The notes under the pieces: model-generated
Seen by the model: the letters and a program-made list of their open reading frames with translations, nothing else
Told to the model about the DNA's origin: nothing
Databases searched by the model: none
Position numbers and translations under genes: made by a program
NCBI GenBank assembly: GCA_023132075.1
Contig: JAGLYT010000083.1
Span: forward strand, 1-6,937
DNA from: JAGLHV01 sp023132075 [NCBI: bacterium]
GTDB lineage: Bacteria > CBDUZB01 > JAGLHV01
DNA length: 6,937 nt
Direction: 5' to 3'
Part shown: piece by piece, positions 155-4,135 of the stretch
Numbering within the stretch: the stretch's first letter is position 1
Layout of the letters: each line of letters begins with the position of its first letter

Positions 155-1639
155 ATGGCTGGAAGATTAAGTGAGATTCTTCAACGTGAAAAGGTTATTT
201 CCGTAGAATCTTTTCAAAGAGCACGGGAAGAGAGCAGGCTACAGGGAGGAATGGATATAGCGTGCTTGATAAACAATGATTATCTAACAGAAGATGGTTT
301 GATCGATTTTTTGAAAAAAAAATATAACTATGTTTATTTTGACTTAGGAAAGCATAAAATAGAAAATGATCTTATAAAACAAATTCCGGCTGGTATCGCA
401 AGAAGGTTTTTTGTCGTCCCTATTGCTAAGACAAATAATATACTTGCTGTAGCTATGCTGGACCCCGTAAGTGATGAAGTTATTGAAAATTTGAAAAAAA
501 TAACGGATTATTCCATTTTGCCTTTTATAAGCCGGAAAAAAGATATTGAAAAAGTTCTTTATTATCAATACGTTTCAGCCCCCGAATTTGTCGAAGATAA
601 AGGCAATGCGAATATTGCTTCAGATGAAAAAGGATTACCTTTAATGAAGAAATTCGTTTTTGATAATTTTATAATAGGGAGTGGAAACAGTTTTACCTAC
701 GCAGTGGCGGTGGCAGTAGCTAAATTTCCCGGAGGCAAATATAATCCCTTGTTTATTTACAGTCATACGGGATTAGGTAAAACGCATTTAGTAAATGCTA
801 TAGGTAATCATTTAATTGCAAACAATCCTTCGATGAAAGTTTTTTATATTAACACGGAACGGTTTGTTAAAGATATTGTTAATGCAATAAAGAATAACAC
901 TGTAGATGAATTACATAGCAGATACAGGGAAAATGATGTTTTTTTAATAGATGATATTCAATTTTTAATTGGCAAAGAAAGAGCGCAGGAAGAGTTTTTT
1001 CATACTTTTAATGCTTTATCTCAATCTAACAAACAAATTATAGTTACCAGTGATCGTCCTCCCGTAGAATTTAAAAACATTGAAGAACGGTTAAAAACAA
1101 GATTGGCGGGGGGGATAATAACAGATATTCAGCCGCCGGATTTAGAAACCAGGGTAGCTATTTTAAAAAAGAAACTTAGCTTAAAGGAAAATAAAATTAT
1201 TCTTTCCGATGAAGTTATTTTTTTTCTGGCACAAAATATTTCTAATAGTGTAAGGGAATTAGAAGGGGTTTTAAACAGGTTAATTGCGATTTCCCGGTTG
1301 ACATTGAAAGGCGGAGAAATCACTCTTGTTATGGCAAAAGAATTGCTTAAAGATATTTTAGCTTTTACTGAAACAGAGGTGCCTGAAAAAAAGCCGGAAG
1401 TTAAAAATAATGACTTTCAAGTTGCGAAATCTTTTAAACAAAAAATTAAGAATGCCAAAGATTTGCAGGAAATAATGGATATAATTGAAGAAACAGTGAA
1501 TTTTTTGGTTCCGAAAGCAGTTGAAAAACAAAATCAACAGGCATTGGATATGTTAAATGAAGTAAAGAAATTGTTGGGTGAAAAAAATCTACAGGAAGCT
1601 TTTAAATTAATTAATAAATTACAGCAAATGAATTTGTAA
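155..1639 (+). CDS. MshEN domain-DnaA AAA+ fusion protein lacking the DnaA DNA-binding domain
   Basis: A 494-residue cytoplasmic protein, not a normal replication initiator. Residues 1 to about 140 resemble the MshEN/GspE N-terminal domain (T2SSE_N family): two helical repeats (4-27 and 33-56), then an alpha/beta part with IPAGIARRFFVVPI and LAVAMLDPVSDEVI. Residues about 165-400 are a DnaA domain III ATPase: Walker A-like SHTGLGKT (203-210), Walker B VFLIDD (262-267), sensor I TSD (298-300), arginine-finger candidate R316 in ERLKTRL, and sensor II R367 in SVRELEG. The initiator-specific helix region (about 233-257) is also present. The DnaA domain IV helix-turn-helix is missing; residues about 420-494 are a lysine-rich helical tail I do not recognise. 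Walker A is odd, with Ser-His where DnaA has Gly-Gly. A DUF4388 gene follows 86 bases on. By analogy with Hda (DnaA AAA+ without domain IV) it might act on DnaA, but I see no clamp-binding motif. Domain calls are confident; function is inferred. Confidence 0.9.
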   Translation: MAGRLSEILQREKVISVESFQRAREESRLQGGMDIACLINNDYLTEDGLIDFLKKKYNYVYFDLGKHKIENDLIKQIPAGIARRFFVVPIAKTNNILAVAMLDPVSDEVIENLKKITDYSILPFISRKKDIEKVLYYQYVSAPEFVEDKGNANIASDEKGLPLMKKFVFDNFIIGSGNSFTYAVAVAVAKFPGGKYNPLFIYSHTGLGKTHLVNAIGNHLIANNPSMKVFYINTERFVKDIVNAIKNNTVDELHSRYRENDVFLIDDIQFLIGKERAQEEFFHTFNALSQSNKQIIVTSDRPPVEFKNIEERLKTRLAGGIITDIQPPDLETRVAILKKKLSLKENKIILSDEVIFFLAQNISNSVRELEGVLNRLIAISRLTLKGGEITLVMAKELLKDILAFTETEVPEKKPEVKNNDFQVAKSFKQKIKNAKDLQEIMDIIEETVNFLVPKAVEKQNQQALDMLNEVKKLLGEKNLQEAFKLINKLQQMNL

Positions 1640-1725: not shown

Positions 1726-2475
1726 GTGATTATTAAAGGCAAATTAAATCCGGTTGATTTGAGTAAGATTTTAAAAACTTTTTCGGAAAACAAAGAAACA
1801 GGTTCTTTGGTTGTTATAAATAGTGATAATAAAATAAAAAAAAGTTTTTATTTTCAGGAAGGAAGTTTGTGTTGGGTTTCTTCTTCCCAAAAAATATCTC
1901 TGGATAGAATAATTTTAGGATTTAAAAAAATTTCCGAGGAGAAAATTAAAAAAGTAATAGAAATCCAGAATAAAACAAATAAATCGCTGGAAGAAATTTT
2001 AATGCAACAAAAAATTCTTTCACAAAGCGAGTTTGTAGAAATTCTTAAGCGTCAGCTTTTGGAAGAAATTTACGATGTATATACATGGGAAGAAGGGTTC
2101 TACGAGTTTAATAGAGAATTTTTATCTGATGAGTTTTTGAAAAAAATAGAAAAGTTACAATTTTTTGTCGATATTGACGATCTAATCAGTAAAGGAAATT
2201 TATGGAATAAAAAGGCAAAAAAATGGAAAAGCAGTATTTTTGCAGAGAAATCTTTAATTTTTACCGTGGTTGAAAAAATAAAATCTCAGATAGGGCTTTT
2301 TTTTGATAGAGAAAAAAAAATAATTCTTTTAATAGACGGAAAGAACAAAAAAGATGAAATAGTCGAAAAAAGCGGTCTGTCAGAGCCGGAAGTGTCTGTG
2401 ATTTTATATGCTTTGGCTTTGAGAGGAATTATATTTTTAAAGAAAGATATTAATGAGTATATATTTTTTGTATAA
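1726..2475 (+). CDS. DUF4388 (PatA N-terminal-like) domain protein
   Basis: A 249-residue protein. An in-frame TAA at 1720-1722 leaves the GTG at 1726 as the only sensible start; a GAGAG 11 bases upstream is a modest ribosome site. Residues 3-55 match the DUF4388 opening: GKLNPVDLSKIL, then TGSLVV, then FYFQEGSLCWVSS. Residues 58-81 and 87-110 form two 24-residue helical repeats, each ending in Gln and separated by 5 residues. WEEGFYEFNRE (121-131) closes the domain in the family's usual way. Residues about 196-240 (IILLIDGKNKKDEIVEKSG, then LYALALRGII) resemble the small winged-helix-like tail common in these proteins. There is no signal peptide or membrane segment. DUF4388 proteins are widespread in signalling and gliding or polarity contexts, mostly without a defined biochemical role. 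Adjacency to the MshEN-DnaA gene suggests they work together, which is inference. Confidence 0.8.
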   Translation: MIIKGKLNPVDLSKILKTFSENKETGSLVVINSDNKIKKSFYFQEGSLCWVSSSQKISLDRIILGFKKISEEKIKKVIEIQNKTNKSLEEILMQQKILSQSEFVEILKRQLLEEIYDVYTWEEGFYEFNREFLSDEFLKKIEKLQFFVDIDDLISKGNLWNKKAKKWKSSIFAEKSLIFTVVEKIKSQIGLFFDREKKIILLIDGKNKKDEIVEKSGLSEPEVSVILYALALRGIIFLKKDINEYIFFV

Positions 2476-2698: not shown

Positions 2699-4135
2699 AT
2701 GAATTTTATGATTACTCAAAACCTGACCAAGGAATTATTTAAAATTGCCGCAGAAAAAGAAATGGATTTTGCTGATGTTTATGCAGAAAACACACATTCT
2801 ACGAGTGTAATTTGTGAAGAAAATAAAATTGAATATGTTTCTTCCGGTGTAGATAAGGGGGTAGGAATTAGGTTTATAACGGGAGAGGAAACGCTATACG
2901 CAAGTACTAATGATTTTTCCCCTAAAAAACTAAAAGGATTAGTCGTAGAGTTATGCTCATCTTATGAGTTTAAGCGGGAAAAAGAAAGAGGGAAGAAAAA
3001 ATGTTTGGATGTTTTTTCTTACGAACATCTTAATGATGAAAATAACAAATTAAACAACATAAAAAAAATGCCGGATAATATTCCGATGGAAGAAAAGGTT
3101 CAATTGGTTAATTTAGCTAATAATGCAGCAAGAAATATAGATAGCAGGATTAAACAGGTTAAAGTTATTTATAATAATATAATAAAAGAGGTGATAGTTG
3201 CTAATTCTTTCGGTTTATATAATTGCGAGAAAAGAGTGTATACTACTTTTTCAGTAAGAGCGATTGCTTTTGACGGGAAGATTATTCAAACGGGGAGTGA
3301 AACTATCGGAGGATTAGTCGGTTTTGAATTGTTCGATAATTATAACGTAGAAATTTTATCCTGCAGAGCGGCAAAACGGGCGGTAAATTTATTGAGTGCT
3401 CCCGAAGTTCTTGCCGGAAATATGCCTGTGATTTTATCTTCGCAAGCTGGCGGGACGATGATTCATGAAGCAATCGGGCATAGTTTGGAAGCGGATTTAG
3501 TGCAAAAGGGAGTATCCCCTGCTTATGCAGGCAGGAAAGGACAAAAAATAGGATCTGAATTAATTACCGTAATTGATGACCCGACTCTTTTTTCCAAACG
3601 GGGTTCTTATCTTTTTGACGATGAAGGAATACCTGCCAGAAAGAATGTTTTAGTGGAAAACGGTGTCTTGAAAAATTATCTTTACGACCTTTTTAGTGCA
3701 TGGAAAGATAATACAAAATCAACAGGGAATGGCCGGCGTGCTTCCTATCGATTTAAACCTATTCCCCGGATGAGTAATACTTATATTGCTTCGGGGAAAG
3801 AAGATCCTCAGGATATTATTAAAACACAGGAAAAAGGATTATTAGTCAAAAAAATGGGGGGAGGGGAAGTAAACACTGCTAATGGGGATTTTGTTTTTGA
3901 AGTAGAAGAGGGATATGAAATAATTAATGGAAGAGTTGGTGCATTAGTGCGGGGAGCGACTTTAATAGGAAATGGCCCGGAGGTTTTAAATTCAATTGAT
4001 AAAGTGGGAAGAGATTTAGGGTTCAATATAGGTACTTGTGGAAAGGATGGTCAGGGAGTTCCTGTTTCGGATGGTCAGCCGACTTTGCGGATACCTAAAA
4101 TTATAATTGGAGGTACTACAAAAGAAAAAAACTAA
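2699..4135 (+). CDS. tldD: Metalloprotease TldD (TldD/PmbA family)
   Basis: A 478-residue protein, close to the 481 of E. coli TldD. In known systems TldD pairs with TldE (PmbA) in the cytoplasm and trims unfolded peptides, for example microcin B17 leader removal and CcdA degradation. TldD is the catalytic, zinc-binding subunit. The metal motif HEAIGH is at residues 256-261 (H256, E257, H261), following SSQAGGTM. The probable third ligand is C447 in FNIGTCGKDGQGV. Other family landmarks are EADLVQKG (264-271), FDDEG (306-310) and NGRRASYRFKPIPRMSN (344-360). The complete active site argues for TldD over TldE, which lacks the metal motif. The ATG at 2699 has a poor ribosome site, and the ATG at 2708 is an alternative; an in-frame stop at 2696-2698 excludes earlier starts. 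No tldE/pmbA is adjacent: the next gene is a Crp/Fnr regulator. Confidence 0.93.
   Translation: MNFMITQNLTKELFKIAAEKEMDFADVYAENTHSTSVICEENKIEYVSSGVDKGVGIRFITGEETLYASTNDFSPKKLKGLVVELCSSYEFKREKERGKKKCLDVFSYEHLNDENNKLNNIKKMPDNIPMEEKVQLVNLANNAARNIDSRIKQVKVIYNNIIKEVIVANSFGLYNCEKRVYTTFSVRAIAFDGKIIQTGSETIGGLVGFELFDNYNVEILSCRAAKRAVNLLSAPEVLAGNMPVILSSQAGGTMIHEAIGHSLEADLVQKGVSPAYAGRKGQKIGSELITVIDDPTLFSKRGSYLFDDEGIPARKNVLVENGVLKNYLYDLFSAWKDNTKSTGNGRRASYRFKPIPRMSNTYIASGKEDPQDIIKTQEKGLLVKKMGGGEVNTANGDFVFEVEEGYEIINGRVGALVRGATLIGNGPEVLNSIDKVGRDLGFNIGTCGKDGQGVPVSDGQPTLRIPKIIIGGTTKEKN

What the first reader, a model, noticed from the sequence alone, without database searches (positions are those of the whole stretch)
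155..1639. DnaA-type ATPase fused to an MshEN second-messenger domain and missing domain IV
The AAA+ core is very close to true DnaA (FLIDDIQFLIGKERAQEEFF-like Walker B region, ITDIQPPDLETRVAIL, sensor II VRELEG). The N-terminus is an MshEN/GspE-N domain instead of DnaA domains I-II, and the box-binding domain IV is absent. MshEN domains of type II secretion and pilus ATPases can bind c-di-GMP. The fusion suggests a DnaA-like switch controlled by a nucleotide signal or by pole or pilus machinery, possibly an Hda-like regulator of initiation. The architecture is directly visible; the role is inferred.
Basis: partly seen in the sequence, partly recalled or inferred. Interest (0 to 1): 0.8.

Follow-up and report, generated by a model that had tools for sequence, protein, structure and literature searches.

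The report
Pilus-linked DnaA-type ATPase with MshEN domain
A protein whose motor half closely resembles the DNA-replication starter DnaA has lost its DNA-grip and carries instead the regulatory head of bacterial pilus motors; several relatives sit in pilus or cell-polarity gene clusters, so DnaA's ATP switch may have been reused to control surface movement.

Summary
Confirmed: window 155-1639 encodes MshEN (res. 1-139), an intact DnaA-type AAA+ core (161-405) and an 89-residue helical tail, without DnaA domains I or IV. The genome has a separate canonical dnaA. The fusion occurs in 3 of 3 genomes held of the genus, under purifying selection, and in 10 genomes of 4 families found in two overlapping surveys (386 and 385 genomes). 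Neighbours point to type IV pili and polarity: in the genus it follows Roadblock, MglA-like and DUF4388 genes (2 genomes; the window's contig starts too late) and precedes a DUF4388 gene (3); in a second lineage it is directly upstream of pilB (3 of 3); in Fermentibacteria it lies in a pil cluster (2 genomes, one reaching pilB). Three further loci show no such neighbours. A split version recurs: double DnaA-type AAA+ gene beside DUF4388 (10 of 10 Gemmatimonadota loci; 19 of 19 in an unnamed, probably identical phylum, against 0 of 11 canonical dnaA loci). The c-di-GMP motif is degenerate here (4 of 12 contacts) but passes NCBI's cut-off in 7 of 7 fusions tested from two other lineages. Best reading: a DnaA-type switch reused as pilus/polarity regulator. 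Hda-like control lacks support. No experiment exists.

The parts
155..1639 (+). MshEN-DnaA-type AAA+ fusion gene, 494 aa plus stop
   Evidence: orthologues in G001, G002
155..571 (+). MshEN/GSPII domain, residues 1-139 (Pfam match 57-134); c-di-GMP motifs I (res. 4-27) and II (res. 33-56) degenerate
572..634 (+). unconserved linker, residues 140-160 (low pLDDT)
635..1369 (+). DnaA-type AAA+ core with lid, residues 161-405
761..787 (+). Walker A, SHTGLGKTH (res. 203-211; K209 = E. coli K178)
941..955 (+). Walker B, FLIDD (res. 263-267)
1088..1102 (+). RLKTR, R312 and R316 = E. coli R281 and R285 (R285 as arginine finger is recalled)
1250..1267 (+). sensor II VRELEG, R367 = E. coli R334
1370..1636 (+). 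89-residue helical tail in place of domain IV; in the alignments made, only in the three genomes of the genus
1726..2475 (+). next gene: DUF4388 with an inserted MshEN_N-like motif and a C-terminal winged helix, 249 aa; same neighbour in 3 of 3 genus genomes; DUF4388 genes also adjoin DnaA-type AAA+ genes in Gemmatimonadota

Best explanation
The protein is an accessory regulator of type IV pili or cell polarity built from a DnaA-type AAA+ switch. Shown: the AAA+ core keeps the catalytic lysine, the Walker B aspartates and the arginines checked (E. coli R281, R285, R334); DnaA-box binding domain IV is gone; the head is a pilus-motor MshEN domain; relatives lie in pil operons, and the genus copies beside MglA-like, Roadblock and DUF4388 genes. 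Inferred: ATP drives DnaA-like oligomerisation, and the MshEN head docks the oligomer on the pilus motor or on DUF4388/MglA partners, so that the nucleotide state sets where or when pili are extended. In Fermentibacteria and the Abyssobacteria-like lineage c-di-GMP binding to MshEN is the likely input; in the window's genus the c-di-GMP site has decayed and the input is more likely the MglA-Roadblock-DUF4388 module encoded with it.
For: Operon context in G001 and G002 (L110, L109): ExeA-like AAA, Roadblock, MglA-like GTPase, DUF4388, fusion, DUF4388 (the window itself starts 154 bp upstream of the gene). Directly upstream of pilB in G026, G098, G099; pilT follows in the three loci read far enough (L048, L113, L115), pilC in L113 and L115. 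Fermentibacteria L111/L112: a run of MshEN genes, several with a DnaA-type AAA+, after a prepilin-peptidase-like gene (by eye); pilB follows in L112, the L111 contig ends earlier. Second DnaA-like gene of the genus lies two genes after a PilT-like ATPase in G000 and G002. Split version: DUF4388 adjacent in 10 of 10 Gemmatimonadota loci, and in 19 of 19 loci of the phylum of G063 against 0 of 11 canonical dnaA loci. dN/dS 0.26-0.28 (MshEN), 0.09-0.11 (AAA+), 0.13-0.23 (tail). Literature: MglA-GTP stimulates T4P formation (PMC7519303, abstract); PATAN-REC regulators bind PilB1 (PMC9090330, passages); some mglA genes lie near PATAN genes (PMC4316618, passages); that DUF4388 is the PATAN domain is recalled.
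Against: Guilt by association only. Three further MshEN-DnaA loci (G268:C41, G386:C7, G152:C283) show no recognised pilus or polarity gene in the flanks read. The window's locus has no pil structural gene beside it; the pilB-pilT-pilC genes of the genome are on another contig, C57. The positions of E. coli V211 and R245 (ssDNA contacts, recalled) hold the same residues in the window, so action on DNA is not excluded. In the two smaller Fermentibacteria fusions (L111a, L112a) the position of R285 is G, so not every member can switch in the same way. One origin of the fusions is neither shown nor rejected (AU p 0.162), so the lineages need not share a function. In the reverse test only 4 of 27 DUF4388 loci outside the genus adjoin a DnaA-type gene.
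Confidence: 0.55

Rival explanations
1. Hda-like or dominant regulator of DnaA: the AAA+ core mixes with canonical DnaA and stimulates its ATP hydrolysis or caps its filament, with MshEN placing or gating it.
For: Equivalents of R281, R285, R334 and the Walker residues kept; closest structures are DnaA domain III; a DnaA with domain IV was found in 9 of the 10 fusion genomes, G268 not tested.
Against: Hda model 94.2 bits against cut-off 194.8; no match to a clamp-binding pattern (motif recalled); neighbours are motility/signalling genes in most loci read.
Confidence: 0.12
2. ssDNA- or DNA-uptake-related ATPase: the initiator-specific region contacts ssDNA at a pilus-linked machine (transformation), MshEN docking it there.
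For: V211 and R245 equivalents kept in the window; pil operon context in relatives; a CinA-like gene (a family named for competence, recalled; recognised by eye) is the fifth gene upstream in L109 and L110.
Against: The R245 position is R, K or A among the fusions aligned and S in the own canonical DnaA; apart from CinA no competence gene was recognised in the genus loci read.
Confidence: 0.13
3. General signalling ATPase without a fixed pilus role: DnaA-type AAA+ cores combine with various input domains (MshEN, REC, others), and the pil contexts reflect MshEN's origin from a pilB duplication beside pilB.
For: REC-DnaA proteins in Fermentibacteria (REC by eye); three MshEN-DnaA loci away from pil genes; Sumerlaeota long proteins with a C-terminal DnaA core, no clear pil gene in the 6 loci shown (one weak PilM-like match, 16 bits, in L118).
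Against: In the window's genus the gene is not beside pilB but beside MglA-like, Roadblock and DUF4388 genes, kinds tied to pili and polarity.
Confidence: 0.18

Closest known systems
DnaA (chromosomal replication initiator), domain III
   Same: AAA+ core: 51-52% identity and rmsd 1.2 A to B. subtilis DnaA domain III (8bv3); Walker, R281/R285 and R334 positions kept.
   Different: No domain I, no domain IV; MshEN head and helical tail; motility/signalling neighbours in most loci read.
MshEN/GSPII domains of PilB, MshE, PilF
   Same: Same fold; PF05157 above cut-off.
   Different: Joined to a DnaA-type AAA+ instead of the T2SSE ATPase; c-di-GMP contacts mostly lost here, compare the non-binding GSPII-A domain of T. 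thermophilus PilF (PMC12002112, abstract and passages).
Hda
   Same: DnaA-type AAA+ without domain IV.
   Different: Scores below half of the Hda cut-off; longer, with MshEN and tail; no clamp pattern found.
MglA-Roadblock-PATAN polarity modules (Myxococcus, Thermus, cyanobacteria)
   Same: Neighbour genes of these kinds; MglA-PATAN neighbourhoods are described (PMC4316618, passages).
   Different: A DnaA-type AAA+ in the module: 'DnaA' does not occur in that paper's main text.

Membership tests
Canonical DnaA | Bac_DnaA AAA+ domain | tested here: met
   PF00308 218 bits, cut-off 23
Canonical DnaA | domain IV (Bac_DnaA_C) | tested here: not met
   PF08299 not listed for the protein and not found on its contig
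Canonical DnaA | whole-protein equivalog TIGR00362 | tested here: not met
   335.9 bits, cut-off 343.9; the Fermentibacteria fusion L111:7971-9290 passes with 348.1
Hda | equivalog TIGR03420 | tested here: not met
   94.2 bits, cut-off 194.8
Hda | clamp-binding motif (recalled) | tested here: inconclusive
   no match to the pattern tried, but the pattern is from memory
MshEN domain proteins | PF05157 | tested here: met
   50.5 bits, cut-off 23.1
MshEN c-di-GMP receptors | two 24-residue motifs (NF053729) | tested here: not met
   no match at E 0.1 for the window nor at 0.05 for G001; 4 of 12 contact residues. Met by 7 of 7 fusions tested from two other lineages
MshEN c-di-GMP receptors | binds c-di-GMP | not testable with these tools
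   needs ITC or a similar assay
PilB/GspE traffic ATPases | T2SSE ATPase domain (PF00437) | tested here: not met
   not among the 17 families listed
Polarity/pilus accessory factor | encoded with MglA/Roadblock/DUF4388 or pil genes | tested here: met
   window's genus, second lineage, Fermentibacteria; not at 3 other fusion loci
Polarity/pilus accessory factor | needed for piliation or polarity | not testable with these tools
   no experiment available

The most novel reading that the evidence does not exclude
DnaA's AAA+ core founded a class of signalling ATPases without DNA-box binding, whose input domain is exchangeable (MshEN for c-di-GMP, REC for phosphorylation, a separate DUF4388/MshEN partner in Gemmatimonadota) and which uses ATP-driven DnaA-type oligomerisation to control type IV pili or cell polarity in several uncultured phyla.
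Probability: 0.4. Interest if true: 0.87.

Novelty: new variant of a known kind. Interest (0 to 1): 0.7.

Why it matters
DnaA-type AAA+ proteins are known for replication initiation and its control. A recurrent family of them without domain IV, joined to a pilus-motor domain and in several lineages encoded in pilus or polarity operons, would mean that the same ATP-driven assembly switch was reused for motility, and offers a defined protein on which to test whether c-di-GMP can gate a DnaA-type oligomer. It is also an annotation trap: one Fermentibacteria member passes NCBI's DnaA equivalog cut-off.

Tried and rejected
Chimeric assembly or frameshift: rejected, the same architecture and end in three genus genomes and related fusions elsewhere. 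Homology of the window's tail to the helical repeats of the long Fermentibacteria proteins: not supported (sequence E-values 0.11, 0.19 and 3, all below the inclusion threshold). Single origin of the MshEN fusions: neither shown nor rejected (p-AU 0.162 for 8 rows; 59-row tree). The first wide survey did not list the fusion in G268, which the second found, so fusions can be missed by either.

Paper searches: MshEN+c-di-GMP 56 papers, 15 listed; DnaA+MshEN 1; type IV pilus+DnaA-like 2; DUF4388+MglA 0; PATAN+PilB 44, 10 listed; DUF4388 1; DnaA with AAA+ domain/paralog/domain IV/lacking 33, 15 listed; DnaA+PilB+fused+c-di-GMP+replication initiat 1; MglA/MglB/horizontal/MshEN 38, 8 listed; DnaA-like/AAA+/response regulator/receiver domain 72, 10 listed. 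From the titles and abstract openings listed, none describes this protein; unlisted papers were not seen. Papers opened: PMC5013675 (sections 6, 10, 12 and part 1 of 13), PMC11580455, PMC9090330 and PMC4316618 (passages), PMC12002112 (abstract and passages), PMC7519303 (abstract). The supplementary tables of PMC5013675 (MshEN domain partners) could not be seen and might list such a fusion. The names prepilin peptidase, CinA, ThiC, ExeA, TldD-like and REC for neighbours that no family search covered are by eye or recall (TldD and CRP of the window itself are Pfam).

Full report
Window 155-1639 (+) encodes 494 residues with an MshEN domain (PF05157, 50.5 bits) and a DnaA AAA+ domain (PF00308, 218 bits); no DnaA domain I or IV family is listed. 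The own genome (1.87 Mb in 389 contigs, 86.7% complete) has three Bac_DnaA hits: a canonical dnaA with domain IV on C136, the window gene, and a DnaA-like gene of 714 aa on C268.

The fusion is no artefact. Orthologues in the two other genomes held of the genus, G002 and G001, are 87% and 72% identical over the whole length. dN/dS is 0.26-0.28 for MshEN, 0.09-0.11 for the AAA+ core and 0.13-0.23 for the tail; the short linker gives 0.45 and 1.77. The AlphaFold2 model has mean pLDDT 86.3 (38-row alignment; pTM 0.55, so domain placement is unsure). Residues 156-401 match DnaA (8btg_B, Z 32.7, rmsd 1.0 A, 237 residues), residues 1-144 match the GSPII-A domain of PilF (9g1w, Z 16.2, rmsd 3.1 A, 143 residues) and, by Foldseek, MshE with c-di-GMP (5htl).

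The AAA+ core keeps its key residues. Aligned with E. coli K-12 DnaA, the window has the same residues at K178, D235, D236, R281, R285 and R334, and at V211 and R245. Which of these is arginine finger, sensor or ssDNA contact is recalled. The two glycines at E. coli 172 and 173 are S and H. In the two smaller Fermentibacteria fusions the R285 position is G.

The c-di-GMP site is degenerate in this copy. NCBI's motif model NF053729 (cut-off 38) does not match the window or G001. I counted twelve contact residues, six per motif, after PMC5013675 (sections read; which six is my reading of the text): window 4, G002 4, G001 3, G026 6, L115 10, L113 10, L111a 7, L112a 8, L111b 11, L112b 12; pilB proteins for comparison 9 of 12 in all three scored (motif starts were chosen to maximise the score). 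NF053729 passes in 7 of 7 fusions tested from two other lineages: 40.2, 61, 61.3, 62, 68.2, 46.8 and 53.3 bits. The window's DUF4388 neighbour scores 31.5, below the cut-off. [quoted passage not shown] GGDEF domains are present in 8 of 8 fusion genomes tested (G386 and G268 were not), with 7 matches in the own genome.

Distribution. With a 6-row profile, 8 of 386 genomes had a listed match over both domains; with a 9-row profile 9 of 385, a largely overlapping set. Together 10 genomes: G000, G001, G002 (family f1), G026, G098, G099 (f25), G152, G289, G386 (f149), G268 (f211). The lists are cut and mostly four candidates per genome were scored, so fusions may be missed; one search did not list G268. 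A scan of named genomes with two peptide patterns gave 68 loci, among them fusions in records titled Fermentibacteria (L111, L112), Abyssobacteria (L113), Poribacteria (L115) and two of the window's genus (L109, L110). A DnaA with domain IV was found in 9 of the 10 genomes; G268 was not tested.

Neighbourhoods. In G001 and G002 (L110, L109) the order is ThiC-, CinA- and ExeA-like AAA, Roadblock, MglA-like GTPase, DUF4388, fusion, DUF4388, TldD, CRP, and PolA in L109. Pfam on four upstream partners in G001: AAA_22 44.3, Robl_LC7 35.3, Arf 24.3 (cut-off 22.3), DUF4388 89.7 bits; the name MglA is recalled from sequence. The window holds the part from the fusion on. In G026, G098 and G099 the fusion is directly upstream of pilB; pilT is next in L048, L113 and L115; then come a histidine-kinase-like and a response-regulator-like gene (weak matches or by eye) and pilC in L113 and L115. 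In Fermentibacteria (L111, L112) a 983-aa gene, a 422/436-aa MshEN gene, a 423/409-aa fusion and a 1308-aa (contig end) / 1993-aa fusion follow each other after a prepilin-peptidase-like gene; L112 continues through a 484-aa gene to pilB. Three further fusion loci (G268:C41, G386:C7, G152:C283) show no recognised pil or polarity gene (the last contig is only 4.5 kb).

A split version exists. In records titled Gemmatimonadetes, Gemmatimonadales or Longimicrobiales a gene with two DnaA-type AAA+ domains is followed by a DUF4388 protein: 10 of 10 loci (L166, L167, L169-L176). The one such DUF4388 protein scanned (L169) passes NF053729 with 56.1 bits. In the phylum of G063 (unnamed; taken to be Gemmatimonadota because of the shared gene pair) 41 of 41 genomes match the double-AAA+ protein at least through their DnaA. 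Of the 30 loci returned, 19 (from 19 genomes) lack domain IV and all 19 adjoin a DUF4388 frame; 11 are canonical dnaA and none does. Some DUF4388 frames there overlap the AAA+ frame because the ORF caller takes the first start, and some are cut by the locus end. In the reverse direction, of 30 loci fetched for the window's DUF4388 gene, 3 are the genus itself and 4 of the other 27 adjoin a DnaA-type gene (G063, G205, G269, G133).

Tree. On 59 AAA+ domains the 14 MshEN rows need 4 changes and well-supported branches force 2; holding 8 simple fusions together is not rejected (p-AU 0.162). One or several origins are possible.

Mechanism. Shown: an intact DnaA-type core, an MshEN head, loss of domain IV, and pilus/polarity neighbours in three of four families. 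From the literature: MglA-GTP stimulates type IV pilus formation in M. xanthus through SgmX, which is important for polar PilB (PMC7519303, abstract); PATAN-REC proteins interact with PilB1 in Synechocystis (PMC9090330, passages); some mglA genes are near PATAN genes (PMC4316618, passages). Inferred: ATP-dependent oligomers docked by MshEN on the motor or on DUF4388/MglA partners regulate extension; c-di-GMP is the input where the motif is kept. Nothing here shows this directly.

Verdict. A new variant of known parts (DnaA AAA+, MshEN) in a combination for which the searches listed under Tried and rejected returned no description; the wider class reading is kept as the novel case. Interest 0.7.

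Noticed in passing
L049:7013-9154 (G000:C268), L047:3236-5362 (G002): Further DnaA-like gene of the genus (714/709 aa, no MshEN or domain IV match), two genes after a PilT-like ATPase with a GcvH-like gene between.
   Followed up: partly
L180, L185, L187, L188 (Fermentibacteria genomes G386, G289, G152): Proteins of 606-701 aa with a receiver-like domain (by eye) followed by a DnaA-type AAA+ domain: DnaA core as a response-regulator output.
   Followed up: partly
L118, L119, L125, L135, L139, L164 (Sumerlaeota records): Proteins of 1361-2151 aa with a DnaA-type AAA+ domain near the C-terminus.
   Followed up: no
L166, L167, L169-L176; L210, L217: Double DnaA-type AAA+ genes next to DUF4388 in Gemmatimonadota; single-AAA+ relatives beside DUF4388 in G269 and G133 end in a similar W-rich stretch (by eye).
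   Followed up: partly
L058, L060 (G026, G099): Giant frames of 1754 and 1722 aa with two weak DnaA-like matches next to a TldD-like gene (by eye); the window also has TldD (2699-4135) downstream.
   Followed up: no
L056:1480-2535, L057:1201-2271: DnaA with domain IV but a very short N-terminus (352/357 aa), just downstream of a PilB-type gene.
   Followed up: no
window 1726-2475: The predicted winged helix of the DUF4388 protein (res. 161-240) best matches subunits of the SEA/GATOR1 complexes (8adl_S, Z 10.7, rmsd 2.6 A, 76 residues), which act on Rag GTPases (recalled); may be only a common fold.
   Followed up: no
L111:7971-9290: A MshEN-DnaA fusion passes the TIGR00362 DnaA equivalog cut-off (348.1 against 343.9) on the stretch scanned: misannotation risk.
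   Followed up: no
L148: Record titled Thermoplasmata archaeon carries a bacterial DnaA-type AAA+ gene: possibly a binning error.
   Followed up: no
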